64,000 bases of DNA, from positions 765,501 to 829,500 of the forward strand of contig JAPDOI010000137.1 of assembly GCA_029168955.1 (NCBI GenBank), given 5' to 3'. Source of the DNA: Aplectana chamaeleonis. Taxonomy: Eukaryota > Nematoda > Chromadorea > Rhabditida > Cosmocercidae. The notes under the pieces were generated by a model. The model saw only the letters and a program-made list of their open reading frames with translations. It did not search any database and was not told where the DNA came from. Made by a program: the position numbers and the translations under genes. Positions 29,349 through 62,126 of this stretch are shown piece by piece (position 1 is the first letter of the stretch; every line of letters begins with the position of its first letter).

Positions 29349-29438
29349 ATATTATACCTTGGTTTTCAAATGAGCCAGAAAATCGAACAAAGCAAATGAT
29401 CTCCAGGATGTCAGTGCCTATTTGAACCATACTTAGTT

Positions 29439-33316: not shown

Positions 33317-36300
33317 ATGTGGGATCTGTTGGTGCTTACAGCCGGTAATGAACGACAGAAACAAAATTTCGAACTTCTCCTCAAGGAATTGGACATCACA
33401 CCATACTGTAGGGAGACGACTGTCATTGCTGATTATCCGCCGGGTGTGAAAACAGGTGAGCCTACTAGCGGTAGCGGAATAAAACTCCAAAATACTGGCA
33501 AATTATTGGACAAAGAAAGCTAATTCTCACATTTCTAGTGATACATTCGGTAAGCAGGGACAAATTATGGATTTCAGACTATTAAGAACTCTTAAAGATT
33601 CTTAGGGTTGCTGATGGTCGACAACGGTACAAAGATGTTTTGAGTAGAATAAGGAAGAGGGCTACCGAAGTAGTGCTGCTGAGAGGACCCCGCTCTAACA
33701 GAGAGAGAGAGAGAAATATCTCAGGCAGTTACCGCCCCCAGCGAAGCGACTCTTCTACTTACATAGTCCCAGAAGCGAGTGGGCTGGATGCATCGATCTT
33801 GAGCAAATGAGCTACAGCAAGTCGGGGAATCTCAGGATATGCCAGTATACGGCTAAATATGGAAACCATATTCCTGTTTATGAGTAAGCTATGTGTCGCT
33901 GCTAAAGGCAGTGTCCACGATAAAGACTGTACAATACCAACCCTCGAACTTCGCAAAAAGCTCGTTCTTTGCGCTTCTTTGAAATAACTGTGAAATTTGG
34001 GGTTTTGGAGGCAAGAAAGATATTACAAGAATCGTCTCATCAAGATAAACAAGATGGTGTTAAAATTTCATTGTTATCTTAAACTATACCTTATTTAGAG
34101 GTATGTTGGTCTTTTCATAATACGTTTTGACTCGTCAGGATGCTAGCACAGAAGTTTCGAATCAACTTACTTGCGTGATATCCGGGCAAAATCAAGTTAC
34201 TTGTGGCTTACCTGCGTTGTTTAAATTACTTGCGAGGTTGGGACTCGCAAGTAACTTACATGTGCATAACCAGTAACTTACATGGTAATGATTACCTTGA
34301 TGATGGCTGTTGGGTAAACTGAGTCCTGTGCGCTCGCGCAGTCAACTTTAGGGCCGCAGAGGGCCAACCGGGACTAGCTCAAAGCCGTTTTTTTTTCGAC
34401 AAGATTGTTGCACTCTGTCCCAGTCTTTTGGATTACCTGTGGAAAATCGAAGATAGTTTTCATTATGGACACTACCTTTGAAGAGAGAGGTCTCGAAGTT
34501 GATTTTAGATACGTCTCTGGTTTCTCAAATCTGGTAAAGAAAAATCCTAGTTCGATGTTAGATTTGACTTTTTCCTACTTTTACAAGCACAAAAACCATG
34601 TCGCAGAGACAGCTGAATCCGTTGGATGTCATTATGAGCGCGCACATTGCCTATTTGAGAAATTTTCGAGCAATCGCTAATCTTATTCTATCAAAAAGGG
34701 GTTTTCCAAGCAAGAGAGGTTTGGTTGGCGTCAGAAACGTTCCAACAAAAAGGGAACAATAGGTAAGTAGAATGAGGAGAGTCTACAAAAAGCGAACAAT
34801 ATTTTCTGAGACTAATTTCCCTGGCCGATACTTCTTAACAGCGAAAACAAACCGTTGTGGTACTTCACGAGGAAGACTTCAATGGTTTCCAAGAATGGAC
34901 TTCAATTATTTGACGAGATTATAATAAAATACACTCATTAGATGCTGCACTTTGGTTTCGCTTCTCGTAGCAGCTGGAGCTAACCGTCCGTCTGTGTTTT
35001 TGGCATCATCTTCTATTCTGATGGTAAGTATTAGGTTTACATGCACATACTTTTTAACGGTTCTCGTGTAGTCAAGATCATTTTTGAAACCACAGAGTGC
35101 TTCCGTGTAGAGCGCCGCAACGGTTTGTTTTTGTTGTTAAGAAGTATCGGCCAGGAAATTAGTCTCAGAAAATATTGTTCGCTTTTGTAGACTCTCCTCA
35201 TTCTACTTACCTATTGTTCCCTTTGTTGGAACGTTTCTGACGCCAACCAAACCTCTTGCTTGGAAAACCCCTTTTTGATAGAATTGTTCACTTTTTATTG
35301 ATATTACGAAGTAATATCCTGAAAAATCTTCAATATTTTTCGAAAAGCATGGATTGCTATAATAATCAGTAAGCAACAAACTTGTTGCGCACGCTACAAA
35401 TGAAGCGCTACCACTTTCCACGACGTCCTGATGACGTCAAAGATGCCCTATGCACTTGGCACCACCTTGGCACGACGTCCTGATGACGTCACCAGATGCT
35501 TTATGCACATGGAACGACCTTGGCACGACGTCCTAATGACGTCATCAGATGCCCTATGTACTTTAGATGACACCTGATGACGTCATCAGATGCCCTATGT
35601 ACTTTATATGACACCCTGATGATGTCATCAGATGCCCTATGTATTTTAGATGACACCCTGATGACGCCATCAGATGCCCTATGTACTTTAGATGACACCC
35701 TGAAGACGTCACCAGATGCCCTATGTACTTCACATGACACCCTGATGACGTCATCAGATGCCCTATGAACTTTACATGACACCCTGATGACGTCATCAGA
35801 TGCCCTATGTACTTTAGATGACACCCTGATGACGTCATCAGATGCTCTATGTACTTTAGATGACACCCTGATGACGTCACCAGATGCCCGATGTACTTTA
35901 GATGACACCCTGATGACGTCATCAGATGCCCTATGTACTTTAGATGACACCCTGATGACGTCATCAGATGCTCTATGTACTTTAGATGACACCCTGATGA
36001 CGTCATCAGATGCCCGATGTACTTTAGATGACACCCTAATGACGTCACCAGATGCCCGATGTACTTTAGATGACACCCTGATGACGTCATCAGATGCCCT
36101 ATGTACTTTACATGACACCCTGATGACGTCATCAGATGCCGTACATGAGTAAGAAGTAAAGTAGTTAACGTGAATCAGTAAATAACAAACTTGTTAGTAA
36201 CTTTCCTGTCCCTTCCCATCGAAAAGTTCAGCCTACGACGTGTTTTTAGCGAGTTGATCTACCAACTGATAATATCACACGATATGATAAGCAGTAAAAG

Positions 36301-39300
36301 TAAAGTAGTTAACGTGAATCAGTAAGTAACAGACTTGTTAGTAACTTTCCCTGTCCCTTCCCATCGAAAAGTCCAGCCTACGACGTGTTTTAGCGATTTG
36401 ATCAACCAACTGATAATATCACATGATATGATAAGCAGTAAGAAGTAAAGTAGTTAACGTGAATCAGTAAATAACAAACTTGTTAGTAACTTTCCCTGTC
36501 CCTTCCCATCGAAAAGTTCAGCCTACGACGTGTTTTAGCGAGTTGATCTACCAACTGATAATATCACACGATATGATAAGCAGTAAAAAGTAAAGTAGTT
36601 AACGTGAATCAGTAAGTAACAGACTTGTTAGTAACTTTCCCTGTCCCTTCCCATCGAAAAGTCCAGCCTACGACGTGTTTTAGCGATTTGATCAACCAAC
36701 TGATAATATCACATGATATGATGAAGCAGTAAGAAGCAAAGTAGTTAACGTGAATCAGTAACAGACTTGTTAGTAACTTTCCCTGTCCCTTCCCATCGAA
36801 AAGTTCAGCCTACGACGTGTTTTAGCGAGTTGATCTACCAACTGATAATATCACATGATATGATAAGCAGTAAAAAGTAAAGTAGTTAACGTGAATCAGT
36901 AAATAACAAACTTGTTAGTAACTTTCCCTGTCCCTTCCCATCGAAAAGTCCAGCCTACGACGTGTTTTAGCGATTTGATCAACCAACTGATAATATCACA
37001 TGATATGATAAGCAGTAAGAAGTAAAGTAGTTAACGTGAATCAGTAAATAACAAACTTGTTAGTAACTTTCCTGTCCCTTCCCATCGAAAAGTTCAGCCT
37101 ACGACGTGTTTTAGCGAGTTGATCTACCAACTGATAATATCACATGATATGATAAGCAGTAATAAGTAAAGTAGTTAACGTGAATCAGTAAATAACAAAC
37201 TTGTTAGTAACTTTCCTGTCCCTTCCCATCGAAAAGTTCAGCCTACGACGTGTTTTAGCGAGTTGATCTACCAACTGATAATATCACATGATATGATAAG
37301 CAGTAAAAAGTAAAGTAGTTAACGTGAATCAGTAAATAACAAACTTGTTAGTAACTTTCCTGTCCCTTCCCATCGAAAAGTCCAGCCTACGACGTGTTTT
37401 AGCGATTTGATCAACCAACTGATAATATCACATGATATGATAAGTAGTAAGAAGTAAAGTAGTTAACGTGAATCAGTAAATAACAAACTTGTTAGTAACT
37501 TTCCCTGTCCCACCCCATCGAAAAGTTCAGCCCACGACGTGGTTTAGCGAGTTGATCTACCAACTGATAATATCACATGATATGATAAGCAGTAAGAAGA
37601 AGGTAGTTAACGTGAATCAGTAATTAACAAACTTGTTAGTAACTTTCCCTGTCCCTTCCTATCGAAAAGTTCAGCCTACGACGTGTTTTAGCGAGTTGAT
37701 CAACCAACTGATAATATCACATGATATGATAAGCAGTAAGAAGTAAAGTAGTTGACGTGAATCAGTAATTAACAAACTTGTTAGTAACTTTCCCTGTCCC
37801 TTCCCATCGAAAAGTTCAGCCTACGACGTGTTTTAGCGATTTGATCAACCAACTGATAATATCACATGATATGATAAGCAGTAAGAAGTAAAGTAGTTAA
37901 CGTGAATCAGTAATTAACAAACTTGTTAGTAACTTTCCCTGTCCCTTCCATCGAAAAGTTCAGCCTACGACGTGTTTTAGCGAGTTGATCAACCAACTGA
38001 TAATATCACATGATATGATAAGCAGTAAAAAGTAAAGTAGTTAACGTGAATCAGTAAATAACAAACTTGTTAGTAACTTTCCCTGTCCCTTTCATCGAAA
38101 AAGTCCAGCCTACGACGTGTTTTAGCGATTTGATCAACCAACTGATAATATCACATGATATGATAAGCAGTAAGAAGTAAAGTAGTTAACGTGAATCAGT
38201 AATTAACAAACTTGTTAGTAACTTTCCTGTCCCTTCCCATCGAAAAGTTCAGCCTACGACGTGTTTTAGCGAGTTGATCTACCAACTGATAATATCACAC
38301 GATATGATAAGCAGTAAAAAGTAAAGTAGTTAACGTGAATCAGTAAATAACAAACTTGTTAGTAACTTTCCCTGTCCCTTCCCATCGAAAAGTTCAGCCT
38401 ACGACGTGTTTTAGCGAGTTGATCTACCAACTGATAATATCACATGATATGATAAGCAGTAAGAAGTAAAGTAGTTAAGGTGAATCAGTAAATAACAAAC
38501 TTGTTAGTAACTTTCCCTGTCCCTTCCCATCGAAAAGTCCAGCCTACGACGTGTTTTAGCGATTTGATCAACCAACTGATAATATCACATGATATGATAA
38601 GCGATAGTAAAGTAGTTAAGGTGAATCAGTAAATAACAAACTTGTTAGTAACCTTCCCTGTCCCTTCCCATCGAAAAGTCCAGCCTACGACGTGTTTTAG
38701 CGATTTGATCAACCAACTGATAATATCACATGATATGATAAGAATCGACTGGACTGTTGTAGACTGAGCTGTGGTACAACTATTTATTGAGGAGAGTCAC
38801 CTCTCCGTACCACTACAAACTACAAAATAAGCATCTATAACCGAACGAGCCGCCTTAAGAAGGAGCGGACGCGGCCTCCGATCGCAGGCCCCGCCTGCCG
38901 ACGACGAGAGACCACGGGGGCAGACGAGCGCGAGGCATACATAAGATGCCCTCCCCCATCCACCCCTCCGCGCCCATCGATCGACGGAAACGAACACCAC
39001 CTTAACTCAACGAGGACCCACACCGGAAACGAGAAAAGGGAAGAGGACAATTGTATTACAGGGAAAAAGACAGAAAAACAAACTATTACAAATCATTAGA
39101 CTAATAGTAGAACTACGGTAAACAGTACATTTTAGACTACTACTCTTAACATGCCCGCACTAACTTGAGAGTCGTCCCGACTCACATCACAAATGAGATC
39201 ACTAGACTCCTCTCCGGACATCCCTCTTCTCCATACCATGGTTCCTGCGTCCGGTGTCGCGGCGGCCCTCGACATCTCCACTGAGTCGGTGTCCTTCCGG

Positions 39301-42300
39301 CTTCAGGCATCTTCCGTGACGTTCGTCTCGGTCGACTCGAGCGTGAACAGATGGTGACCGGTGGGTGTCATACCGAGCGCGCTTCGCTCCTTCATTCATT
39401 CCATGACGGACATTGCTGCGATTTCCGGAGTGTGGATCATGGAACGAGATTGCCTGCCGATGCCGCATTCTCTCCGGATCTTGAACCACCCAGAAGTTAG
39501 GCGTTCTCTCGTCACGGCGTCGCTTGGCCTTTAGCGCTTGCTCGCGCTTCCTCTGCTCCTTGAGCTCCTCAGAAGCCGGTTCGAATGGCAACAGTTTGAC
39601 TACGTCATTGACTGTAAGCCTCATCTTCTCGAGGTAGAACACCACTTGGCTCCCGAAGAACGGAGAGCGTTTGTAGCGGGGCTGAAGACCCAAACATATG
39701 GCTGGATGCTCAAAAGATCCTCCATCCAAAACATCACTGTAACAGTCCACGACTAGCGCGTCGAACTTCCTTCCGGGGTCTGTAACATACTTGACCCACT
39801 GTCTGCACACCTCACCCATTTCTCTCCATTGCGCCGCGTTCGAATCCTCTTTTGGGTGCGGGAGAAAAATAAGCGTGCCACTGACTTGCACGTGACGTTC
39901 CAGCGCGATGAGCAACCGCCTCATTGAGATACCACTAGGCATTTCGTCTGGCCATACAAGAATTATCGTTGTCGTCACTGGCATTTCCATCAGCTTATTC
40001 GCAAGCAAGTCCCAGTCCATGTAGGTGCAGATAGTTATGTTCTTGGCATAGTCGACCTCAAAGTGCACTCTCGAAAACGATTTCGGGAGAGCGATGAAGA
40101 CCGTGGAACTGCTCGTACCGTCACTCTGCTTCATATGCCCCAACATTCCGATGGCGCTCGTGACATAGGCACCGACGTCGTAACAGACCGCAACGTTGAA
40201 AGAGCCGTGTGGTCGAACCGTACACCTTTGGCTGCCTCTATGGCTTCAGCATAATCGACGCATCTGCGCCGATGGGCCTCCATGGCAACAGCAAGGCCGT
40301 AGGGAGTGAGATACGTCGACTTTGGTTTGCGAAGCTCCAACTCTTTCCTTTCATCGCCCCAACTTTCTTGTTCGGCGATGGAGGCGACGTTAACCAGCTC
40401 AAACATGTCCGCCACTTTCTTCGAGCGTGCCATTTGGTGTTTCATACTGGGAAGAGCGACGTGGGCACGCTGGCCAAACAGTCCACAATCACAACGGTGA
40501 CGCAAGTTCAGCGGATGTTCCATATCGATCATCGTCCTGAAACAACGAGCTTTTCGACAAGTTCGAATCTCTGAAAGGGGGTTCTTCCTAGGCCTGCCCC
40601 GCTTCCCACGAGTTTTTGCAGTCTGTACTGGATCATCCGCTATCCCTTTAGGTAGTGTTTTTAGCGCATCGAACGGCACTCTAATCGGTTCGTTATTATA
40701 ATTTATCTCCGTTGTTAGTGCGCTATTCTCCGAAGTTTGGAGGACTCGGTAGGGTCCTCTGCTTCTCCTATGGTATCTTCATATACACTCGGTCACCCAC
40801 TTTCGGTGGATTGCGGCAGACGTTCTTCTTATCATCCATCGTAATTGATCTTCATTCTGTCGCGCATCCGGCGATTCACCTCCTGTACATATTTTCGGGC
40901 AATCTGTGTGCCTACAGCTACCTCTTGAGCGTAGCTCTCAACATCCACAGAATATTTACTCACATCTGTTTGCGGCACTGTTTCCCAAGGTACATAGGCA
41001 TCGAACCCATGCAACAGGAAGAATGGTGATTCTCCGATAGATTCATGAGCGGTTGTGTTGTATGCGAACATACAGAACGGGAGAATCTTGTCCCAGTCGG
41101 AGGGCACAGTAACTTTCTTCCTCAGTAGCTGAAGTATCGTTTGGTTGAATCTTTCAGTTACTCCGTTCTCTCGAGGGTTGTGACCCTTGGTCATGACGTG
41201 TTCGATTCCCATGAGTTTGCGTAACTCGGTCATCAACTTATTCTCGAACTCTCCGCCTTGATCAGTGAGTATGCACTTCGGTTGCCGACAACCTTCGGCA
41301 ATCCATCTCTCGAAAAACACCCGAGCAACGAGCTCCGCGTTCTTTGACGGGATTGCGTAAGTACCTCCGAATTTTGTGAAATGGCCCACTACACTCAGAA
41401 TGTATCTGTTTCCTTCCTTTGTGCTTGAAACTTCAATTATATCCAGCCCTACCAGTTCGAACGGGGTGGATGTCGATATGGGCTTGAGCGGTGGAGTCAT
41501 GTCATGCTGCTTGTTGTGACAAAAGCAATCACGACACTCTTTTGACCACTTATTCACGTCTTGAGCCATCGATTCCCAGAACAGTCTCTTTTCGAGTTGT
41601 TTTATCACCTTTTTAGGACCGTAATGCCCTGCTAGCCGTCCTGAATGTGCCTCGTTGAACACCTGCTTCCGTTTTGATGGTGGGACCACCTTTCGAGACC
41701 TGTGATTCTCCATCAGTGCGAGAAAGCCCTGGTCTGCACGAAGTCGGCGATCTTCAACTTTTTACTCAGCCCAGGCAAGGCGACCTCCGTGTCCAAGCTT
41801 CCTTGCTCGATTCCGGTGATAATCGCTCCGTAAACCTCGTCTTGGCGGAGCTCTTTCGTCCACTCAGGTTCATATGTAACCGCCGCGACGATGAGCTCGT
41901 TTGGTATCGGTTCACCATTTACCTCATCCTGAAGCGGAACTGTTCCACGACTGAGCGCGTCTGCAACTCGATTAGCTGCTCCCCTTCAGATACACGATCT
42001 TCAAATTATATTTCTGAAGCTCAGGGCCGATCGAAGGACTCTGGAGGAAACGTTGGTTCTCGTGAACAGAGCAGTAAGTGGCTGGTGGTCGGTGAAAACT
42101 TCTACAGGAAGCCCGTAGACAAACATGTGAAACTTCCTTAGAGCGAATACCACTGCAAGAGCCTCTAAATCCGTCACATGATAATTATTTTCACAGCTTG
42201 TCAAACCTTTTTGACGCGAAGAACACTGGGTGAAGGAGGCTATCGTCCCCCCTCCTGGCTGAGGACTGCCCCCAGTCCTTCATAACTTGCATCGGTATGA

Positions 42301-45300
42301 ATTTTGAAGGGCTTCCGGCCACTTCTAGCTCCTTCGATGTCTGGTTGGGCGAGAACAGGAGCTCGTAATGATAGTCTTCAGCTGCTCAAAACATGTCTTC
42401 CTGGTGAAGTTCCACTCGAACTCCACTTTTTCAGAGGTCATCTCGTGTAACGGTGCAGCCACCTTTGAAAACCCTAAGACAAATTTTTCTCTAATAGGAA
42501 CACATCCCAAGAAATGTGCGGAGGTTTGAACGCGACTGTGGAAGCGGATAATTCACTATCGCTTCGACCTTAGCAGGGTTCATGTGCAGGCCCTCGAAGT
42601 CGATTACGTGACCCAGAAACTCTACTCGTTCCTCCGCCAGCACACACTTTTTAGGATTCAGTCTGAGTCCCCCTTTCCGTAGGGCCAGCAAAACCTTTCT
42701 TAGCCCAGCCATGTGCTCCTCCCGCGTAGCTGTGGCGTTCATTATGTCGCCGAGATAGCAGAAAACGTCATCACCCAGCACTTGGCCCAGGACAGCATGC
42801 ATCAGTCTTTGAAACACTGCTGGGGATGATGCTAATCGAATGGCAACACTCGAAATTGATATAGTCCCTCCGTTGTAGTGAAGGCGGACTTCTCTTTTGT
42901 TTCCTCTGATAGGGCAATCTGCCAATATCCTGACGATAGATCTAGTGTTGAAAAACATCGTTTCCCGGCTAAGCTTTGAAGGATAGAGTCAATGGTGGGC
43001 AGTGGGTAGCTGTCCACCTTCGTGACCTGGTTAACCTTGCGGTAATCTACGCATAACCTCAGACTGCCGTCCTGCTTCTGCACCAAGACTATCGGCGATG
43101 CCCAGCTACCCCTGCTTGGTTCGATTATGTTGCGCTCCTGTAGGTCTTCCAGTATGCGTCGCAACTCGACTTTCGTTGCAAGCGGGATTTGCCGTGCTTT
43201 CTGCCGAATAGGTGCTGCGTCTCCGGTTTCGATCGGAGGCTCCACTAAACTTGTCCGTTACAGCGAAGACATCGGAGTACTCCTCCACGAGCACGACCAA
43301 TTGCCCGTCGTCCTTCCTTGTTCTCTTGTGTTCGAATAGGAATTTTAGTAGCGTGTCAAGTCGATTTTGTTCCTCTGCTGAAGTCCGTTCTAACATGTTG
43401 TCCCTATGATGAAGCGGCCTCTTCCCCACAATAGTTGTGGGCTCACATAACCCCACTGCTTCTCCTTCCTTGAAGATCACTGGCTCTGCAAGGGAATTAG
43501 TGATTGGGACCTCGATCGTGCCAATCGTGCGACCGCGAACGACGTCTGGGACCACTTCGCAAGTTGACCACACCATTTTCTGATGGTGTTCTCTTGGACA
43601 ATGTATCGACAGAAGTTTTGTCTCACCTGGACGAATGTACACTCTCTTCGCCACTGTAGCTGCTTCTTGCGATCCTCCCACAGTCTTGCCTTTATCTTTC
43701 TTCTTTTTTTTCCCGCGTGACTTGTCCTTTTTACATTTGGGGTGGTCATCTGGGCCAACTGTGTCAAGTTAAGGTCGAATTTGTACAGAGCGTTGGTGCC
43801 TAATACCAGCATTCCATCACCCTTCATCACGAAGCACGCTATTCTTTGCTTGCTACCATTTCCAATCTGCATGGAAAGCCTGATCGCTCCTTTGAAGACC
43901 ATAGCATTCCCAGAAGCATCGAACACCGGAGCACATCCTCTAAGTGGAATCTCTTCAACGTCGTTGTTCAAATCGAACCCTGACTTGAAGGCTGTTTCCA
44001 ACATCTCTAGAGGAATGATACTCACTTGAGAACCTGTGTCTAGCAGAGCCTGTCGTGAGAATCCAAGGAGCTGTACCTCTGATGACATTTGTTTCCCCAC
44101 TAAATCGTCCCGCAGGCTGGGTGAACTCACAGTTCCACACATCCATTTGCTCAGCGAAGCTGTAAAGTTCATCGCTGGTGTCTGCCTCGTTGTCCTTCCC
44201 ATTCCACTAGCTTCACGCTGCGAGGGTTTCTTAGGACCTTGGCAGTTGCGAGAGTAGTGTCAGGCTTGCCACAATTATAGCATTTCAGCACTTTCTTTGG
44301 TTCTCCACTTGACGACGCAGATGCAGATCCATTTGCCAGCTTTGGTTTGACGGAACTAGTACGTTGTTGACTTTCTTGTGTCGGTTGCGAATTACTGCCT
44401 CTCCCTATTTCGGTGGATTTCGGTCGGCTTGTCTTTGCAGCTTGCCGCATTCCTGAAGCAATTCGCTCGCATTGTTGGACCAATCTTTTGACCATCTCGT
44501 AATGACAGCCTTTTGGCGCAGCCTCCAGCGTTGCGTACAGCTGTAGATACTCCGGCCAATCCGTGAGTTGTGTTACGAGTTCACCAGCTCGCGTCCTCGA
44601 CAGTTCCTCATCCGAGGCATTCGGATACGCTATCCTTGTTAGTCGCTCGAGCTCGATGCAGAATCTCGTTACATCAACATCTTTCTTCAAATGCTTGAAT
44701 TGCATGTAGGCCTTCATCTGCTGCGCAGGGTCGCTAGCACTAAGACTCTTCCGCATACCCCTAATGATTCCTTCGAGACTTCCTTCGCGGACGTTTCTTG
44801 GCAACGCCTCAGCCACTGCTTTTGGGAACCCGTCCAGCTTGGAGAGGAAAAGGTGGGTAAGCATGTCGTTACCTAACCCCAGGTTTTGGTATTTCATCTT
44901 AAACCTGACAGCGAAGTCGTCAAAGCGCTCTCCCTTGGGTTCTGCAAAAGTTTCCACCTCTGGTAGGCTCATAGCCGCGAACATGTTCCCCAAGTTAAGG
45001 TGAGTGTCAAGATTCTCATGCCCACCTTGGAGGACGGCGTTCGGTGGTGTCGGCCAGTTCGATTCCATCTGCCTCTGCTGACGCGACCTGTTCCCGGTGC
45101 TCTGCAAAAAGTTAGGTGAGTGAAATGGGAACCAATCTGGCTCAGGCGTAACCCTTGGTGAGATTCTTGACTCACCTCTCGCTGCTCAATGGGGTCGAAC
45201 TCCGCATGGTAGACGAATTCCCTGTTCGCTTCGTCGAACGTGATCTGCTGAATGTTGGCCGTTGGAGCGCCTGTTACTGCGACGTTGGCTGGCTGACCCT

Positions 45301-48300
45301 GAATAGTGCTCCTATTACTTTGATCCAACTGCCCATGTTGCTGACAAATCTCCACGAAGGCTCTCGATTTGCTCACAACCTCTGTGGCATCAACGTTGAA
45401 CAGCTCGCACAGTCGCCGCAGACAATTGTCCACTTCAGCAGACTGTTCACGCTGCTCCTCCAGAGCGGTAGCGAGGTTTTCCGAAAGTGTGACCGTTTCG
45501 GGTCTCCTCACCTTATCGGCACCCTGGCTAGAGAGCACGTTGACCTTGTCCATGAGTACATTCATCATGGTTCGCATCTCGGCCAGCTGCTGGGATGTTG
45601 TGGGCTCATTCAGCGCCAGTCGTTGCATTTCCATAACACTTTCTTCTGCGTTGCTGCTTGAAGCCATTGTTCTGGAATCACTAATCGTCACTGGCGATTA
45701 GGCTATCGGCCGCGAGACAATAGCGATCAATTTGTAGTCGGGCTCCTACACGGAACAGTGTCGAGCGTCACTACAACGGACCCCACTCTGTGACGGCGTC
45801 GATCGACACGCACGCTACCCACGCAGCGACGAAACACAACAGTGTATTCCGTGAATAACACTGATGCGTCTCACCACACGGGCACGCACACGCGACCGCA
45901 CCGCGTGAATGAGGATACACTGCTTCCAAGTAGGAGCAGGACTACACGCCGTAACCGCTTGACAACGGCTTAAGGGCGGATCGCTGGTCCTCTTCTTCGG
46001 CCTCGGTTCGGCCCCCAAATCGACTGGACTGTTGTAGACTGAACTGTGGTACAACTATTTATTGAGGAGAGTCACCTCTCCGTACCACTCTACAACTACA
46101 AAATGAGCATCTATAACTGAACGAGCCGCCTTAAGAAGGGAGCGGACGCGGCCTCCGATCGCAGGCCCCGCCTGCGACGAGAGACCACGGGGGCAGACGA
46201 GAGCGCGAGGCATACATAAGATGCCCCTCCCCCCCCATCCACCCCTCCGCGCCCATCGATCGACGGAAACGAACACCACCTTAACTCAACGAGGACCCAC
46301 ACCGGAAACGAGAAAAGGGAAGAGGACAATTGTATTACAGGGAAAAAGACAGAAAAACAAACTATTACAAATCATTAGACTAATAGTAGAACTACGGTAA
46401 ACAGTACATTTTAGACTACTACTCTTAACATAAGCAGTAAGAAGTAAAGTAGTTAAGGTGAATCAGTAAATAACAAACTTGTTAGTAACCTTCCCTGTCC
46501 CTTCCCATCGAAAAGTCCAGCCTACCACGTGTTTTAGCGATTTGATCAACCAACTGATAATATCACATGATATGATAAGCAGTAAGAAGTAAAGTAGTTA
46601 AGGTGAATCAGTAAATAACAAACTTGTTAGTAACCTTCCCTGTCCCTTCCCATCGAAAAGTCCAGCCTACGACGTGTTTTAGCGATTTGATCAACCAACT
46701 GATAATATCACATGATATGATAAGCAGTAAGAAGTAAAGCAGTTAAGGTGAATCAGTAAATAACAAACTTGTTAGTAACCTTCCCTGTCCCTTCCCATCG
46801 AAAAGTCCAGCCTACGACGTGTTTTAGCGATTTGATCAACCAACTGATAATATCACATGATATGATAAGCAGTAAGAAGTAAAGTAGTTAATGTGAAACA
46901 GTAAGTAACAAACTTGTTAGTCACTTCCCCTGTCCCTCCCCATTGAAAAGTACAGCCTACGACGTGTTTTAGCGAGTTGATCTACCAACTGATAATATCA
47001 CATGATATGATAAGCAGTAAGAAGTAAAGTAGTTAATGTGAAACAGTAAGTAACAAACTTGTTAGTCACTTCCCCTGTCCCTCCCCATTGAAAAGTCCAG
47101 CCTACGACGTGTTTTAGCGATTTGATCAACCAACTGATAATATCACATGATATGATAAGCAGTAAGAAGTAAAGTAGTTAAGGTGAATCAGTAAATAACA
47201 AACTTGTTAGTAACCTTCCCTGTCCCTTCCCATCGAAAAGTCCAGCCTACGACGTGTTTTAGCGATTTGATCAACCAACTGATAATATCACATGATATGA
47301 TAAGCAGTAAGAAGTAAAGTAGTTAATGTGAAACAGTAAGTAACAAACTTGTTAGTCACTTTCCCTGTCCCTCCCCATTGAAAAGTACAGCCTACGACGT
47401 GTTTTAGCGAGTTGATCTACCAACTGATAATATCACATGATATGATAAGTAGTAAGAAGTAAAGTAGTTAACGTGAATCAGTAAATAACAAACTTGTTAG
47501 TAACTTTCCCTGTCCCTTCCCATCGAAAAGTTCAGCCTACGACGTGTTTTAGCGAGTTGATCTACCAACTGATAATATCACATGATATGATAAGTAGTAA
47601 GAAGTAAAGTAGTTAACGTGAATCAGTAAGTAACAAACTTGTTAGTAACTTTCCCTGTCCCTTCCCATCGTAAAGTTCAGCCTACGACGTGTTTTAGCGA
47701 TTTGATCAACCAACTGATAATATCACATGATATGATAAGTAGTAAGAAGTAAAGTAGTTAACGTGAATCAGTAAATAACAAACTTGTTAGTCACTTCCCC
47801 TGTCCCTCCCCATTGAAAAGTCCAGCCTACGACGTGTTTTAGCGATTTGATCAACCAACTGATAATATCACATGATATGATAAGCAGTAAGAAGTAAAGC
47901 AGTTAAGGTGAATCAGTAAATAACAAACTTGTTAGTAACCTTCCCTGTCCCTTCCCATCGAAAAGTCCAGCCTACGACGTGTTTTAGCGATTTGATCAAC
48001 CAACTGATAATATCACATGATATGATAAGCAGTAAGAAGTAAAGTAGTTAATGTGAAACAGTAAGTAACAAACTTGTTAGTCACTTCCCCTGTCCCTCCC
48101 CATTGAAAAGTACAGCCTACGACGTGTTTTAGCGAGTTGATCTACCAACTGATAATATCACATGATATGATAAGTAGTAAGAAGTAAAGTAGTTAACGTG
48201 AATCAGTAAATAACAAACTTGTTAGTAACTTCCCCTGTCCCTTCCCATCGAAAAGTTCAGCCTACGACGTGTTTTAGCGAGTTGATCTACCAACTGATAA

Positions 48301-51300
48301 TATCACATGATATGATAAGCAGTAAGAAGTAAAGTAGTTAACGTGAATCAGTAAATAACAAACTTGTTAGTAACTTTCCCTGTCCCTTCCCATCGAAAAG
48401 TCCAGCCTACGACGTGTTTTAGCGATTTGATCAACCAACTGATAATATCACATGATATGATAAGCAGTAAGAAGTAAAGTAGTTAAGGTGAATCAGTAAA
48501 TAACAAACTTGTTAGTAACCTTCCCTGTCCCTTCCCATCGAAAAGTCCAGCCTACGACGTGTTTTAGCGATTTGATCAACCAACTGATAATATCACATGA
48601 TATGATAAGCAGTAAGTAAAGTAGTTAAGGTGAATCAGTAAATAACAAACTTGTTAGTAACCTTCCCTGTCCTTCCCATCGAAAAGTCCAGCCTGCGACG
48701 TGTTTTAGCGATTTGATCAACCAACTGATAATATCACATGATATGATAAGCAGTAAGAAGTAAAGTAGTTAAGGTGAATCAGTAAATAACAAACTTGTTA
48801 GTAACCTTCCCTGTCCCTTCCCATCGAAAAGTCCAGCCTACGACGTGTTTTAGCGATTTGATCAACCAACTGATAATATCACATGATATGATAAGCAGTA
48901 AGAAGTAAAGCAGTTAAGGTGAATCAGTAAATAACAAACTTGTTAGTAACCTTCCCTGTCCCTTCCCATCGAAAAGTCCAGCCTACGACGTGTTTTAGCG
49001 ATTTGATCAACCAACTGATAATATCACATGATATGATAAGCAGTAAGAAGTAAAGTAGTTAATGTGAAACAGTAAGTAACAAACTTGTTAGTCACTTCCC
49101 CTGTCCCTCCCCATTGAAAAGTACAGCCTACGACGTGTTTTAGCGAGTTGATCTACCAACTGATAATATCACATGATATGATAAGCAGTAAGAAGTAAAG
49201 TAGTTAATGTGAAACAGTAAGTAACAAACTTGTTAGTCACTTCCCCTGTCCCTCCCCATTGAAAAGTCCAGCCTACGACGTGTTTTAGCGATTTGATCAA
49301 CCAACTGATAATATCACATGATATGATAAGCAGTAAGAAGTAAAGCAGTTAAGGTGAATCAGTAAATAACAAACTTGTTAGTAACCTTCCCTGTCCCTTC
49401 CCATCGAAAAGTCCAGCCTACGACGTGTTTTAGCGATTTGATCAACCAACTGATAATATCACATGATATGATAAGCAGTAGAAGTAAAGTAGTTAATGTG
49501 AAACAGTAAGTAACAAATTTGTTAGTCACTTCCCTGTCCCTCCCCATTGAAAAGTACAGCCTACGACGTGTTTTAGCGAGTTGATCTACCAACTGATAAT
49601 ATCACATGATATGATAAGTAGTAAGAAGTAAAGTAGTTACGTAAATCAGTAAATAACAAACTTGTTAGTAACTTTCCTGTCCCTTCCCATCGAAAAGTTC
49701 AGCCTACGACGTGTTTTAGCGAGTTGATCTACCAACTGATAATATCACATGATATGATAAGTAGTAAGAAGTAAAGTAGTTAACGTGAATCAGTAAGTAA
49801 CAAACTTGTTAGTAACTTTCCCTGTCCCTTCCCATCGTAAAGTTCAGCCTACGACGTGTTTTAGCGATTTGATCAACCAACTGATAATATCACATGATAT
49901 GATAAGCAGTAAGAAGTAAAGTAGTTAAGGTGAATCAGTAAATAACAAACTTGTTAGTAACCTTCCCTGTCCCTTCCCATCGAAAAGTCCAGCCTACGAC
50001 GTGTTTTAGCGATTTGATCAACCAGCTGATAATATCACATGATATGATAAGCAGTAAGAAGTAAAGTAGTTAATGTGAAACAGTAAGTAACAAACTTGTT
50101 AGTCACTTCCCCTGTCCCTCCCCATTGAAAAGTACAGCCTACGACGTGTTTTAGGGAGTTGATCTACCAACTGATAATATCACATGATATGATAAGTAGT
50201 AAGAAGTAAAGTAGTTAACGTGAATCAGTAAATAACAAACTTGTTAGTAACTTTCCCTGTCCTCCCCATCGAAAAGTACGGCCTACGATGTGTTTAAGCG
50301 ATTTGGTCTACCAACTGATAATATCACTTGATATGATAAGTAGTAAAAGGTGAAGTAGTTAATGTTAAAGTAAGTGAGTAAGTAATCATATCTGTCCACA
50401 TACCAACTTACCTACCTGCCCAACTGATCGCCTGGCAGTGGCCACTGGCAGTGGCTTGTGGCAGGAACGAGGAACGAGGACGAGGGACGAGGACGAGGAC
50501 GAGGGACGAGGACGAGGAACAGGACACGAGGACGCGTTACAAGAAAAACGCGAATTTTAGCTAAGCTTCCGCCGATCTAACTTTGTTAATTTTCAATCGA
50601 TTTGGCTCAAATTTTGTCAGCGGGTGTCTTCTATACTCTCTCACTTATATGCAGAAGGAAATCTCTAGAAAATTTGTTTTACAGGTTTTATTAACTACTT
50701 TACCAAAATCTAAGTGATCACAAGTGCCAGGCAAAACCAAACCTCTCCAGCCGCTTCGCGGCTGGAGCGATTCGACGTCATCGTAGGCTGTAGCCTGTGG
50801 TTCGAATATCAGTTTTTTTTCACAGCGAAGTGTCCCACAATGTTTTGAGCCCCATTATCACATCGTAGGACATATTTTGTCTGGCTGATCGTGCTTGATA
50901 AATAGTTGACAAAGAATAGGTCACAGACCGAGGGCCACATACGATTATCATACAGGAAATTATGAGGACTTCATTTTCTTCGAAGTTTTTGTGCGGCGAG
51001 AGTTTGTCAAGTCCTTGAAGATTTCAGGTGCCGGTGGAGCCACCATGAACGTTCTGCACTCAATCGAAAGTCGGATGAAGGGAATGAAGGTGAGGTGGAC
51101 TTCCAAACGTGCTGAACTGTTCAAAATGTTTAAGAAAGAAAAGAATTATTTTTCGTTTGTGGCTGTCGATAGTGGCAGTTCAACGCCACGTCGGGCACAT
51201 TTGCGCAATCTCGCGCCGATTTTTGTATCTCTCGTTTTGCTCGAAATAAAAAGATCGTCATATTCTTCATTTTCAAGGGAGATTCACGTGTTAAATAAAA

Positions 51301-52621
51301 TCTGTCCGAATGAGACTGTCCGACAACGCGGCCGACGTGCGCGTCAAGGGCCCGCTGCGAAGGCTTTTCCCCGAGGCTGCAAATAGCTGACTTGCAAATT
51401 ATCCACTATTATGATGTTTTTTGAATATTTAATGCCTTCGTAAGGCATGGTATATGATCACAAGTTATCACAAGGTAGCTGAGTTGAACACAAAACACAG
51501 ATGTCAGGCAGGATTCGAACCTGCATTGCACGCTTTCCGGGCCAGAGTGTTACCATTACACTACCGAAACCCCGTTCTTCATCACTCAGCTATTCACACA
51601 TGAACGCGGTGTCGGTAGTGTAATGGTAACACTCTCGCCCGGAAATCGTGCAATGCAGGTTCGAGTCCTGCCTGACATCTGAGTTTTGCGTTCAACTCAG
51701 CTACCTTGTGATATCCACTACTAGTCCAATATTTCAGGTAATCAACTTGTAAGTCCAGAAAATGCCTTTGCAATGGCCACCGGACACGCATGCCGACCGC
51801 GTGTGCGGACAGCCCCATTCGGGCGGACTTTAGTTTGTCTATACAGAAAGTAATTGAATGCCATGAACAGACTTTTCATTTCAGGTGCTGCTCATCCACT
51901 CTGGTGGTCTTTCGCAGCGAACACCATATCTATCGGCATTTGGGAAAATATTCGCCACATTGCCAAACGGTGGCACGGTGCTTCAAGTGAAACTGCGCAG
52001 CTATAGGTGGCTTTCGCACATACTTCTTTCAGAATATCCACTTTTTCTCTCTGCTTTCTTTTACTCTTACCAGTATAACATCGTTCTATGTCCTTCTTTC
52101 TGCTTGTCCGTGTGTCTATTTGTGTCTGTCTGTCTGTGTGTCTGACTGACTGACTGATTGTCTCTCTGCCTGTCTTTTCTCTCGTCCTCTCTCTACAACT
52201 CTCATTAAATAAGTAGTAAAAAGAGGGCGTTTCCAAAAAAAAAGCAAAAAAGTGCGAGTAATATTCCTGCATATTCTTTAACCTTGAATGTTCAGACTGC
52301 TTTCAACCGCCCTTCCAGCAGGACTTCTTATTTCCGCATCTGATGTGCTGGAAGACGTTACCTCCTTCGAAAAATGTACTTCTCTGACGGATATGATATT
52401 ATTCGCTACCGAGTCAAATTTAGAGGTGATAATGCCACAAATTCCCGATTAATAGGTGTGCGTTAGAGAAATACATGAAAGATACCTTTGTAGGTAGCTT
52501 CGAACCATGGAGTGTTCGTGGTTGATAAAGGAAAACTCAAATCCGTCTTGCAAAAGCCATCAAAGGAAGACATGAGAGCTTCTGGTGCCATCCTGCCGTC
52601 AGGCAACGCTCTCACGGACTG
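33317..52621 (+). CDS. Fucose-1-phosphate guanylyltransferase, first five exons (partial)
   Basis: FPGT makes GDP-L-fucose from fucose-1-phosphate and GTP in the cytosolic fucose salvage pathway. Exons: 33317-33455, 51028-51089, 51885-52006, 52296-52425, 52494-52621, all in phase; 193 complete codons. Exon 1 gives [13 protein letters not shown], exon 2 the Gly-rich [12 protein letters not shown] (nucleotide-binding loop), exon 3 [20 protein letters not shown], exon 4 [14 protein letters not shown], exon 5 [12 protein letters not shown] and LQKPS. These follow the FPGT family in order and spacing, with the expected HxGG(Y/L)SQR signature. The known enzyme is about 600 residues, so two thirds are missing: the last exon ends in an open donor (G|GTGGGT) and no continuation was found to 64000. 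Intron 1 is 17,572 bp, mostly satellite plus an LTR element. Confidence 0.8.
33903..34480. mobile_element. MITE, AAAGGCAGTGTTCACGA family (copy 3, FPGT intron 1)
   Basis: Left end TAAAGGCAGTGTCCACGATA, right end ATTATGGACACTACCTTTGA. In its middle (34170-34290) are repeated ACTTACATG/TTACTTGCG motifs resembling those around 54000-55300. Confidence 0.7.
34686..35283. repeat. Fold-back element (FPGT intron 1)
   Basis: Inverted arms 34686-34870 and 35100-35283 of about 185 bp (TTCTATCAAAAAGGGGTTTT..., GGTTTGGTTGGCGTCAGAAA, AATAGGTAAGTAGAATGAGG and their complements) with only a few mismatches, around a 230-bp spacer. No transposase frame. High arm identity suggests recent origin. Confidence 0.85.
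35417..36147. repeat. 42-bp minisatellite built on a CRE palindrome
   Basis: About 17 units; the first three are about 52 bp, the rest 42 bp. The typical unit contains ATGCCCTATGTACTTTAGAT, then GACACCC and TGATGACGTCATCA. The 14-bp palindrome is perfect in nine units and one or two bases off in the others (for example GACGTCACC, GATGTCATC). TGACGTCA is the full consensus site of CREB/ATF-type bZIP factors. Because 42 is divisible by three, frames on both strands stay open (14-residue repeats); these are artefacts. The array abuts the 145-bp satellite on its right. Confidence 0.95.
36147..38742. repeat. 145-bp satellite, block 1 (about 18 monomers)
   Basis: The monomer runs from AGCAGTAAGAAGTAAAGTAG through TGTTAGTAACTTTCCCTGTC and CCTACGACGTGTTTTAGCGA to ACTGATAATATCACATGATA. 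Two monomer types differ at linked sites: GTTCAGCC with GCGAGTTGATCTACC, and GTCCAGCC with GCGATTTGATCAACC. They alternate over much of the block, giving a dimer of about 290 bp. The block is broken at 38742 by the LTR retrotransposon and resumes at 46431. Confidence 0.95.
38743..39151 (-). repeat. 3' LTR of the Ty3/gypsy element
   Basis: 409 bp, near-identical to 46018-46430. The minus-strand sequence before it (TTAGTGCGGGC) is a poor polypurine tract. Open frames across both LTRs are shadows shared by the two copies. Confidence 0.9.
39202..40700 (-). pseudogene. Long extension after the integrase, with AT-hook; function unknown
   Basis: Beyond the GPY module the pol frame goes on ([20 protein letters not shown]) into 40131-40679, with KRGRPRKNP, an AT-hook DNA-binding motif, then a Cys/His-containing stretch ([13 protein letters not shown]). 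After one apparent frame change near 40195-40210 it continues in 39202-40146, roughly 300 codons, with alternating hydrophobic strands ([37 protein letters not shown]) like an alpha/beta fold, and an Arg/Lys/His-rich tail. No transmembrane segment or signal peptide, so it is not env-like. I do not recognise the fold; an SGNH-hydrolase-like domain is a guess only. Gypsy elements normally end pol at the GPY or chromodomain. Confidence 0.6.
40832..41713 (-). pseudogene. Integrase of the Ty3/gypsy pol
   Basis: 293 codons. The HHCC zinc-binding domain is visible as [10 protein letters not shown] with CRDC 30 residues later. The DDE catalytic core is complete: [16 protein letters not shown], and the Glu in [14 protein letters not shown]. 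It ends [19 protein letters not shown] and stops near 40832 through a frame change. The next frame carries [13 protein letters not shown], followed by [14 protein letters not shown], the GPY/F module of the integrase C terminus, at about 40700-40760. Function: insertion of the cDNA into host DNA. Confidence 0.85.
42001..43245 (-). pseudogene. Reverse transcriptase and RNase H of the Ty3/gypsy pol
   Basis: Frame 42832-43245 has RT motifs [40 protein letters not shown] and SGYWQI. After a frame change, 42491-42958 has PAVFQRLM, the catalytic loop and [15 protein letters not shown]. The catalytic loop reads CYLGDIMN, where Ty3/gypsy enzymes have YxDD: the first Asp is Gly, a single A-to-G change that should abolish polymerisation. 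RNase H is spread over 42001-42510, with [15 protein letters not shown] and FTDHQPL (two of the acidic residues). Confidence 0.85.
43250..44202 (-). pseudogene. Protease and linker of the Ty3/gypsy pol
   Basis: The frame 43477-44202 contains [16 protein letters not shown], the retropepsin active-site DTGS motif, and later [11 protein letters not shown], the second conserved strand. It continues toward the RT in a neighbouring frame (43106-43681), which carries [19 protein letters not shown] linker residues. The enzyme would cleave the Gag-Pol polyprotein. At least one frame change separates it from the RT. Confidence 0.8.
44169..45691 (-). pseudogene. gag of the Ty3/gypsy element, frame-broken
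   Basis: Two overlapping minus-strand frames. 44969-45691 is the N-terminal part, with a Gln/Glu-rich coiled-coil-like segment ([15 protein letters not shown]). 44169-45107 holds the capsid-like retrotransposon gag region ([52 protein letters not shown]) and the start of a zinc knuckle CYNCGKP near 44285-44265. The His and last Cys of the CCHC are found only in the next frame, so one indel lies inside the knuckle. Another frame change lies near 45110-45170. Gag would package the RNA in cytoplasmic particles. Confidence 0.8.
46018..46430 (-). repeat. 5' LTR of the Ty3/gypsy element
   Basis: 413 bp. On the minus strand it starts TGTTAAGAGTAGTAGTC and ends in CCAGTCGATT. Immediately inside follows TGGGGGCCGAACC (46004-46017 region), a primer-binding-site candidate because it begins TGG, complementary to a tRNA 3' CCA; the tRNA is not identified. 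Small homopolymer indels distinguish it from the other LTR. Confidence 0.9.
46431..50392. repeat. 145-bp satellite, block 2 (about 27 monomers) with higher-order structure
   Basis: Same monomer as block 1. Three main variants can be read from AAGGTGAATCAG (A), AATGTGAAACAG (B) and AACGTGAATCAG (C), plus mixed forms. The series of seven monomers starting near 46722 (A' B B' A B C C') recurs starting near 48893, each about 1 kb, so a segment was duplicated as a unit. The last monomers (from about 50210) are degenerate, as expected at an array edge. Confidence 0.93.
50464..50536. repeat. (GACGAG)n-like microsatellite
   Basis: About 70 bp of ACGAGG/GACGAG/GGACGA hexamer variants following the satellite edge. 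The next 480 bp up to FPGT exon 2 hold no recognisable feature. Confidence 0.85.
51500..51573 (-). pseudogene. Inverted partner of the tRNA-like sequence
   Basis: 74 nt, about 88% alike to 51608-51679 in opposite orientation. The A box and the B box (GGTTCGAATCC, perfect) are kept, but the 5' acceptor strand reads GGGGTTT and no longer pairs with TGACATC. Together the two copies form a hairpin arm pair with a 34-bp loop. Confidence 0.5.
51608..51679 (+). tRNA. tRNA-like sequence, probably a tRNA-derived repeat
   Basis: 72 nt with a pairable acceptor stem (GGTGTCG with TGACATC, two G-U pairs), D arm (AGTG/CACT) and T arm (GCAGG/CCTGC around TTCGAGT). The A box (TAGTGTAATGG) and B box (GGTTCGAGTCC) fit Pol III consensus. 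The anticodon stem has two mismatches and position 33 is C, not U; the formal anticodon would be GGA. I judge it a degenerate tRNA relic or SINE-like unit, not a functional tRNA. Confidence 0.4.
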
Positions 52622-53439: not shown

Positions 53440-53690
53440 GCTTGATCGAAGCCCCCCCCGTCACTGCCCTGAAGCCCCCTGTCACTGCCTTGAAGCCCTG
53501 TCACTGCCCTGAAGCTCCCCTGTCGCTGCCTTGAAGCCCCCTGTCACTGCCCTTAAGCCCCCCTGTGACTGCCTTGAAGCCCCCCCGTCACTGCCCCGGA
53601 GCAGTGACGTCACGGCTCCGGAGCAGTGACGTCACGGCCCCGGAGCAGTGACGTCACGGCCCCGGAGCAGTGACGTCACCCCCCCCCCCC
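53440..53690. repeat. GC-rich minisatellite pair; second part carries TGACGTCA
   Basis: 53450-53595 is an irregular repeat of TTGAAGCCCCCTGTCACTGCC-like units (21-28 bp). 53597-53680 is four exact or near-exact 22-bp units AGCAGTGACGTCACGGCCCC, ending in a poly-C run. The palindrome GTGACGTCAC contains the CRE core TGACGTCA. The two halves are related in inverse (GTCACTGCC against GGAGCAGTGAC). Confidence 0.9.
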
Positions 53691-61206: not shown

Positions 61207-62126
61207 GTTGTAAGATTTCTGCCCTGACGCAAAATGGCAGTGGCTGTTTGCGAAATTTTGTGGTATCTGGGTCCTGGCAGATAAGGCAGGGGGCTTCAGG
61301 TTGAGAGGGTTTGGGGCCGTTCTGTGAGGTTTGTGTTCTTGTTACTATTAGGCGGCTAGCCTTTTGTGGTGGTTTGGGTTGTGTCTGGACAGGGGGCCTG
61401 GGGATGGGATCATGATTCCAATTCCATGTAAAACGGGGGTGTTTTTTTGGGGGCGCACATTGTGGAGGGCGGGGTGCAGAATTGCATTTGCTGGGTCATC
61501 CAACCCGAATCCTACAGGTTTTCGGAGAATTTTTTCTGAGGGGTGCCGGCTCTCTCACAGAGTGGATGGTTCGAGTTTCTTTGGTGCTCTTTGAACCACT
61601 CCTCATAGTATGCAGTGATGGTCTGCGACAGTCTCTGACGGGCTTCTCGACGTTGTTAATTGTTGTGTTCGACGACTGACTTGTTGCGGGTGAGTCCTTG
61701 AGAGGTTGAGCTGACAGTGACGCTTGACTGGCGAGCGCCAAGGCGAGTGGATAGCGGTTCTGATTTTGGGTGGGTATTTATACGGGCTTGGGGCGGGGTC
61801 TGTTGGTTAGAATTTCTGGTGAGATGGATGTCGACGTAGTTCAGAGAAGGTTAGTGATTCGGCACTACATCTTGCGTCAGCCGTAGCGATTGTAACTTTT
61901 ACGACCGCCAGTGGCCAACTGGTGTATGGAGATTAGCAGTCTGGTGGGCAGATAGTTGATCGCGTCGGGCTTTGAATATTCGAATGAGGCTGTGATAGAT
62001 GGGCAGATGTCTAGAAGCACGCCTCCCATTGGTTGTTTACTGGCGTAGAATCGGATGAGTACTGTAGGTACTTTAACTAGTTACTCACTCTTAAGAGAAG
62101 AATTTTCTACAATTATACATAAGTTG
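61207..62126. other. Unrecognised region, possible gag-like frame on the minus strand
   Basis: The minus-strand frame 61496-61741 and a neighbouring frame (TITAYYEEWFKEH, HPLCERAGTPQKKF) have a coding-like texture but contain frame changes and stops. They follow the LTR-like repeat's orientation ambiguously. I assign no function. Confidence 0.25.

What the first reader, a model, noticed from the sequence alone, without database searches (positions are those of the whole stretch)
33456..51027. A 17.6-kb intron of a metabolic gene made of CRE minisatellite, satellite DNA and a retrotransposon
Seen in sequence: FPGT exon 1 (33317-33455) ends with one spare base and exon 2 (51028) supplies the other two to rebuild the Gly-rich KTGAGG loop, so both exons belong to one gene. 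Between them lie a MITE, a fold-back element, 17 CRE-palindrome units, about 45 satellite monomers and a 7.7-kb LTR element. Satellite blocks inside a conserved gene are rare, because heterochromatin should hinder transcription. The gene is either spliced across about 18 kb of satellite, or split and dead in this genome, or misassembled.
Basis: partly seen in the sequence, partly recalled or inferred. Interest (0 to 1): 0.8.

Follow-up and report, generated by a model that had tools for sequence, protein, structure and literature searches.

The report
Satellite-carrying jumping gene inside an intron
The long intron of a roundworm sugar-metabolism gene is swollen by one mobile DNA element that carries its own satellite arrays, itself hit by a retrotransposon, while the gene around it looks intact.

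Summary
In detail: both exons lie where stated and belong to one gene. It continues past the window as nine GT-AG exons with an open 453-codon frame over 42 kb. A search of its 1.04-Gb genome found no second FPGT locus. So "split and dead" is not supported and misassembly is unlikely, though neither is excluded; no RNA was available. The length is ordinary here: intron 5 is 17.2 kb, and both other metabolic genes tested show exon gaps of 12 and 31 kb.

Main correction: fold-back, CRE minisatellite, 145-bp satellite and right tail recur together, in that order, at other loci. They form one non-autonomous mobile element, about 34688-50770; its 26-bp right terminus has 2,559 exact copies. It resembles Helentron-type HINE elements: 13-bp subterminal inverted repeats, 3' hairpin, central tandem arrays, T^T-like target. 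A young LTR retrotransposon later landed in one satellite monomer. Without these insertions the intron is 1,489 bp. Helentron membership is likely but unproven: all three offsets differ from published ones, and no autonomous partner was found in the 5 of 42 places read. New variant of a known kind.

The parts
33317..33455 (+). FPGT exon 1 (codons 1-46 plus one base)
   Evidence: tblastn of relatives
33456..51027 (+). FPGT intron 1, 17,572 bp; 1,489 bp without the inserted element
34688..50770 (+). One composite non-autonomous mobile element, Helentron/HINE-like (CTATC...GCGA), 16,083 bp; 8,391 bp without the nested LTR element and one target copy. The 5' border is uncertain by about 3 bases
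   Evidence: same order at other loci; ends
34685..35284 (.). Fold-back at the 5' end of the element (arms 34685-34897 and 35079-35284, 90%); carries GAGAGGTTTGGTT at element position 27
35419..36140 (.). CRE minisatellite: 53-bp and 42-bp units, 14 exact TGACGTCA, 9 perfect 16-bp palindromes
36148..38742 (.). 145-bp satellite, left part, 18 monomers
38743..46430 (-). LTR retrotransposon nested in a satellite monomer; LTRs 38743-39151 and 46018-46430; TAAG on both sides (38739-38742, 46431-46434); RT and integrase domains in pieces in several frames
46431..50362 (.). 145-bp satellite, right part, 27 monomers
50363..50770 (+). 3' tail of the element; AACCAAACCTCTC starting 36 bp from the end, hairpin CTCCAGCCGC-TTC-GCGGCTGGAG, end GCGA
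51028..51089 (+). FPGT exon 2
51885..52006 (+). FPGT exon 3
52296..52425 (+). FPGT exon 4
52494..52621 (+). FPGT exon 5; intron 5 (17,176 bp) runs out of the window; exons 6-9 lie at C507:835298-841044

Best explanation
Intron 1 of an intact FPGT gene was about 1.5 kb. One non-autonomous rolling-circle-type transposon of the Helentron/HINE kind inserted into it next to T's. The element brings its own tandem arrays (CRE-palindrome minisatellite, then 145-bp satellite) between a 5' fold-back and a 3' tail that ends in a hairpin. Its arrays vary in length between copies, probably by unequal exchange or slippage, and stand at 45 satellite monomers here. Later an LTR retrotransposon inserted into one monomer. 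The pre-mRNA is then spliced normally across 17.6 kb. Shown: open complete gene, recurrent element with fixed ends, LTR insertion younger than the array. Inferred: rolling-circle mechanism, order of array growth, normal splicing.
For: Gene: nine exons, 453 codons, all introns GT-AG; seven exon hits (8 candidates scored), colinear on C507, none elsewhere at E up to 10. Element: C2, C5, C1666, C1357 and C815 carry the same order with both ends, the last three when overlapping loci are combined. In all 29 other listed copies similarity stops at or within 7 bases of GCGA. The 26-mer terminus has 2,559 exact copies, reversed control 0. The two flanks of this insertion matched nothing else in the genome search. 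Of the first four termini listed on C1, 3 have CRE sites within 1.5 kb upstream and 2 have satellite. The 13-bp inverted repeat of the ends scores 26, maximum of 200 shuffles 19. After GCGA comes T in 32 of 33 distinct flanks, then T or A in 33 of 33, then mixed bases; before CTATC comes (A/T)T in 6 of 6 outer ends, 6 inner-arm matches set aside. LTRs: 3 substitutions in 405 aligned bases plus 14 gap columns, TAAG on both sides, and the array reads on across it. Size: gaps of 12 and 31 kb in 2 of 2 control genes.
Against: No RNA evidence. No copy of the 3' end (up to 5 mismatches in 21) within 5.5-8.5 kb downstream of the 5 of 42 Helitron_like_N matches read. No empty site: both flanks are unique, so which T's belong to the host, and a 1-2-bp target duplication, stay open. 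All three offsets lie outside those given for mite HINEs: 5' repeat at +27 (2-4 nt there), 3' repeat 23 bp from the end (38-60), hairpin 3 bp from the end (8-35). The fold-back occurs in L074 without the other parts in the 7.5 kb held, so it may be an element of its own that became the 5' end. One of the first four C1 termini (L064) has neither array within 1.5 kb, and in C4 about 4 kb of other DNA separates satellite and tail. The loop at the exon 1/2 junction has three unusual residues.
Confidence: 0.72

Rival explanations
1. Separate events: a fold-back, a minisatellite and a satellite accumulated one by one in this intron.
For: Each part is distinct in sequence; the minisatellite does not resemble the satellite; the fold-back also stands without the other parts in L074.
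Against: The same order with the same outer ends recurs at five other loci; flanks found nowhere else in the genome begin at those ends.
Confidence: 0.04
2. The gene is split or dead in this worm and the intron is a graveyard.
For: Three of 7 private changes, at 90 positions invariant in six other strongylid sequences, lie in the IGSGGATL loop at the exon 1/2 junction.
Against: 453 open codons in nine exons, no stop or frameshift; exon 1 is 34/46 identical to Nippostrongylus, which itself is 28/46 identical to Haemonchus; no second locus.
Confidence: 0.07
3. Misassembly: the repeats joined two unrelated stretches of contig C507.
For: Satellite arrays are hard to assemble; the assembly may hold some haplotigs (two glycogen phosphorylase sets that share several identical scores). 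The array length itself may be wrong.
Against: Exons on both sides form one gene in order and phase on one contig; the LTR element has TAAG on both sides inside a monomer; the element has its usual two ends in unique DNA; the F-box neighbour lies upstream of exon 1, as in fused gene models of relatives.
Confidence: 0.05
4. The composite is a mobile element but not a Helentron: a Helitron variant, or a fold-back/TIR DNA transposon with a captured tail.
For: 213-bp fold-back at the 5' end; the borders also fit A|T(T)C on the left; the fold-back stands alone in L074; all three HINE offsets are outside the published ranges.
Against: In the 66 and 72 end bases aligned only the 13-bp subterminal repeat is inverted; the 3' end is GCGA, not CTRR; hairpin plus subterminal repeats plus central arrays fit HINEs.
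Confidence: 0.25

Closest known systems
HINE / DINE-1, non-autonomous Helentrons of mites and flies (PMC4067079, passages)
   Same: Subterminal inverted repeats of 12-15 bp, 3' palindrome, tandem repeats in some copies, T-rich target without clear duplication, high copy number.
   Different: A 213-bp 5' fold-back instead of a short inverted repeat; all three offsets outside the mite ranges; autonomous partner not found.
Cg_HINE elements of Crassostrea gigas (PMC7492417, abstract and two sections)
   Same: Satellite-like central arrays, in some elements two different arrays in a row; 5' subTIR plus complementary repeat; 3' subTIR then palindrome; dispersed, also in genes.
   Different: Nematode host; CRE palindrome units; the short repeat (GACGAGG type, 50463-50534) lies in the right tail, not at the left; 45 satellite monomers in the copy studied.
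HcRep/TcRep tandem repeats of trichostrongylid nematodes (PMC3156134, passages)
   Same: A tandem repeat with copies of 111-182 bp, seven in an array in intron 15 of a conserved gene, with many genome-wide matches.
   Different: Sequences M84610 and U86701 are not held, so kinship with the 145-bp unit was not tested; no mobile-element carrier is mentioned in the passages read.
Gigantic satellite introns of Drosophila kl-3 and kl-5 (PMC6508621, abstract)
   Same: Satellite DNA within introns of functional genes.
   Different: Megabases of simple repeats there; here about 6.5 kb of satellite brought by one transposon.

Membership tests
Helentron, non-autonomous (HINE) | Subterminal inverted repeats of about 11-15 bp near both ends | tested here: met
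   13-bp perfect GAGAGGTTTGGTT / AACCAAACCTCTC; but +27 at the 5' end (2-4 nt published) and 23 bp from the 3' end (38-60 published)
Helentron, non-autonomous (HINE) | Palindrome near the 3' end | tested here: met
   10-bp stem, 3-base loop, ends 3 bp before the terminus, -20.6 kcal/mol with RNA parameters; published distance 8-35 bp
Helentron, non-autonomous (HINE) | Insertion at TT, no target duplication | tested here: inconclusive
   Right T in 32 of 33, left T in 6 of 6; no empty site to say which T's are host or to exclude a 1-2-bp duplication
Helentron, non-autonomous (HINE) | Central tandem repeats (in some members) | tested here: met
   Exact TGACGTCA 5-16 and satellite anchor words 4-45 in the six copies with both ends (window, C2, C5, C1666, C1357, C815)
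Helentron, non-autonomous (HINE) | Shares ends with an autonomous element that encodes Rep/helicase/endonuclease | tested here: inconclusive
   42 Helitron_like_N matches in the genome; 5 of 42 downstream stretches read, none has the 3' end
Helentron, non-autonomous (HINE) | No coding capacity | not tested
   No protein-family search of the element outside the LTR insertion was made
Canonical Helitron | 3' CTRR with a hairpin about 11 bp upstream, 5' TC, A^T target | tested here: not met
   3' end GCGA, hairpin 3 bp from the end; definition from PMC4067079 passages; the 5' border alone would fit
LTR retrotransposon | Two near-identical LTRs, target duplication, RT and integrase | tested here: met
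   LTRs 3 substitutions in 405; TAAG on both sides; RVT_1, Integrase_H2C2, rve; clade not tested
FPGT (fucose-1-phosphate guanylyltransferase) | PF07959 domain and full-length similarity | tested here: met
   PF07959 E 2.7e-26 for exons 1-5; 299 of 449 residues identical to N. brasiliensis
HcRep/TcRep satellite | Sequence similarity to U86701 or M84610 | not testable with these tools
   Records not held; only the unit length is similar

The most novel reading that the evidence does not exclude
A Helentron-type element with at least 2,500 termini is the engine that disperses a worm's satellite DNA into introns and intergenic DNA, seeds the long arrays (over 14 kb at one contig start), and at the same time scatters clusters of five to more than fifty perfect CREB/ATF-type palindromes (TGACGTCA) next to or inside genes such as FPGT, where they act as intronic regulatory sites or as a sink for the factor.
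Probability: 0.15. Interest if true: 0.75.

Novelty: new variant of a known kind. Interest (0 to 1): 0.42.

Why it matters
It explains a puzzling satellite intron by one recurrent transposon, and shows a direct way for satellite DNA to reach genes in a nematode: as internal cargo of a rolling-circle-type element. The 29 best-scoring other tails differ from this copy by 0.25-1.27%, so spread may be recent and presence/absence between individuals testable. How satellites became dispersed in holocentric nematodes is raised in PMC3634726 (passages); here one route becomes testable.

Tried and rejected
Rejected: an FPGT exon near 62090 (part of a repeat; exons 6-9 lie beyond the window). Rejected: minisatellite derived from the satellite (scores 12 and 14, shuffles up to 22 and 24), though 23 bp left of the minisatellite do match the satellite (36, maximum of 100 shuffles 25; unexplained). 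Led nowhere: satellite and CRE patterns in viral contigs (0 hits); Rfam (two tRNAs only); DNA search with the satellite itself (0 hits; the tool skips very common words); solved structures (three L-fucokinase/L-fucose-1-P guanylyltransferase entries at E about 1e-4, not used further). Not answered: genome-wide count of CRE units. Considered: that the I46T change makes a stronger splice donor (CAG|gtgagc); not testable without relatives' DNA.

Print search for novelty: (Helentron, nematode, satellite, Haemonchus; at least 2 of 4 terms; 5,715 papers, 20 listed; 18 papers, 15 listed) list no nematode Helentron with satellite cargo; only titles and abstract starts of the listed papers in that one library were seen.

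Change on checking: I first wrote that two offsets differ from published HINEs; it is three. For that I lowered the main reading from 0.82 to 0.72 and raised the non-Helentron rival from 0.20 to 0.25; two other rivals went down by 0.01.
Full report
Where it is. The window lies on contig C507 (765501-829500) of a genome of 1,036,593,504 bases in 2,087 contigs. FPGT relatives place it among strongylid nematodes: 73% to Cooperia, 73% to Nippostrongylus, 72% to Haemonchus over the five exons in the window. In a FastTree of 17 sequences it joins Nippostrongylus with support 0.61.

The gene is open and complete. Exons 1-5 at 33317-33455, 51028-51089, 51885-52006, 52296-52425 and 52494-52621 have AG/GT borders and one open frame. 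Searching the whole genome with the N. brasiliensis protein gave seven exon hits, all on C507 and in order, none elsewhere at E up to 10. With two adjacent stretches fetched the model closes: nine exons, 453 codons and a stop, introns of 17572, 795, 289, 68, 17176, 166, 1430 and 3373 bp, 299 of 449 residues identical to N. brasiliensis. An F-box/LRR gene lies just upstream (26397-29357). It is fused to FPGT in gene models of Nippostrongylus and two Angiostrongylus species, in C. auriculariae (F-box domain listed) and, judged by eye only, in C. remanei.

The size is ordinary here. Intron 5 of the same gene is 17.2 kb; the 145-bp satellite does not recur elsewhere in the 80.5 kb joined. Two control genes, both tried: glycogen phosphorylase hits have gaps up to 12,014 bp (C39) and 12,606 bp (C634), and glucose-6-phosphate isomerase has gaps of 31.4 and 11.3 kb between neighbouring profile positions. 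Such gaps are upper bounds, since a missed exon may lie within. In H. contortus the mean intron of orthologues is 633 bp (PMC4054779, passages). So these three genes suggest a long-intron genome in which FPGT is no outlier.

The four parts are one element. In other loci the parts stand in the same order, followed by the same tail: C2 and C5 complete in one stretch, C1666, C1357 and C815 complete when overlapping loci are combined. C3 shows CRE, satellite and tail in the stretch held; in C4 the tail is set off from the satellite by about 4 kb of other DNA, not examined. The window copy runs from about 34688 to 50770 (CTATC...GCGA); the left border is uncertain by about 3 bases because the fold-back arms also share the bases before it. 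In the 29 other listed tails similarity stops at or within 7 bases of GCGA. The 26-base terminus has 1272 + 1287 exact copies, reversed control 0 + 0. A 38-base satellite word has 1524 + 1784 exact copies, control 0 + 0; only the first 100 places were listed, among them an array of over 14 kb at the start of C6. DNA search with the tail had 2,163 candidates, of which 40 were scored. As a less selected sample, the first four termini listed on C1: CRE sites within 1.5 kb in 3 of 4, satellite in 2 of 4, neither in L064. The two flanks of the window copy matched nothing else in the genome search.

What kind of element. A 13-bp sequence is inverted between the two ends (score 26, maximum of 200 shuffles 19), and a hairpin stands at the very 3' end. 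After GCGA the next base is T in 32 of 33 distinct flanks and the one after is T (18) or A (15); from the third base on all four bases occur. On the left T precedes CTATC in 6 of 6 outer ends, with A or T before it; six inner-arm matches were set aside. This is close to what PMC4067079 (passages) gives for Helentrons and their non-autonomous HINEs, and the double central array is like some oyster elements in PMC7492417 (abstract and two sections). Against: all three offsets fall outside the mite ranges; the 5' end is a 213-bp fold-back whose loop is flipped relative to the C2 and C5 copies; the fold-back stands without the other parts in L074; and no partner was found in the 5 of 42 Rep-domain places read. 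Five of the 29 other tails (L035, L037, L057, L060, L061) run into satellite again after GCGA, so some copies carry a repeated array-plus-tail, which a rolling-circle mechanism could make but which is not proof of it.

Order of events. The LTR element (minus strand) sits within a satellite monomer with TAAG on both sides. The monomers on either side share two subfamily marks; of the 17 left monomers tabulated only the one nearest the insertion has both. So the array was there first. LTRs differ by 3 of 405 aligned bases plus 14 gap columns; its RT domain is split over two frames, by decay or by sequencing indels. Substitutions between the window tail and the 29 best-scoring other tails are 0.25-1.27%, median 0.75%; this sample is of the most similar and does not date the family. 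Removing the element leaves an intron of 1,489 bp.

How the cell copes. C. elegans introns hold many satellites (PMC9918286, passages), Haemonchus has an HcRep array in a P-glycoprotein intron (PMC3156134, passages), and Drosophila transcribes megabase satellite introns (PMC6508621, abstract). Papers on genes with intronic heterochromatin in plants were seen in a search listing only. Normal splicing is therefore the likely outcome; it is inferred, not shown.

An oddity at the junction. The intron interrupts the loop that reads I-G-S-G-G-A-T-L in six strongylid sequences; here it is T-G-A-G-G-A-T-M. Among 67 relatives aligned, gaps aside, no other has T at the first place, one has A at the third, and one, a partial model that starts there, has M at the last. 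Three of this worm's 7 private changes at 90 conserved positions fall here; the six other sequences have 0, 1, 2, 2, 5 and, in a divergent Cylicocyclus copy, 10. Exons 1 and 2 are otherwise about as conserved as in other species pairs. It may mean altered activity, or nothing.

Verdict. A correct observation with a mostly ordinary cause, and one part of wider interest: a nematode satellite that travels as cargo of a Helentron-like element with CRE palindromes.

Noticed in passing
33450-33455 and 51028-51047: Three unusual residues (I46T, S48A, L53M) in the otherwise near-invariant IGSGGATL loop exactly at the exon 1/2 junction; the T codon also makes the exon end CAG|gtgagc.
   Followed up: partly
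53586-53679: A second minisatellite (22-bp unit) with four exact TGACGTCA palindromes, in intron 5 of the same gene.
   Followed up: no
51466-51713: Inverted pair of tRNA-Ser(GGA)-like sequences (51499-51571 minus, 51608-51680 plus, 89% arms) in intron 2.
   Followed up: no
26397-29357: F-box/LRR gene 4 kb upstream on the same strand, fused to FPGT in several published gene models, which suggests an operon or read-through. A TTTTTCAG lies 25 bases before the FPGT start, a possible trans-splice acceptor.
   Followed up: partly
35363-35387: 23 bp of satellite-like sequence left of the CRE minisatellite, as if the minisatellite had grown inside or beside a satellite monomer.
   Followed up: partly
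G000 C39:1424624-1446043 and C634:59560-83342: Two glycogen phosphorylase sets with several identical scores on different contigs: possibly uncollapsed haplotypes in the 1.04-Gb assembly.
   Followed up: no
L035, L037, L057, L060, L061: Copies in which the 3' tail is followed directly by more satellite; on C1666, C1357 and C815 a second tail lies nearby.
   Followed up: partly
L074:4347-5464: The fold-back alone, about 80% identical in its arms, downstream of a Helitron Rep-domain frame on C1497.
   Followed up: partly
L032 (C4:475001-484500): Copy with 54 exact TGACGTCA in the stretch held and about 4 kb of other DNA between satellite and tail.
   Followed up: no
G000 C6:1-14254 and beyond: Satellite array of more than 14 kb at the very start of a contig, where assembly probably broke.
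   Followed up: no
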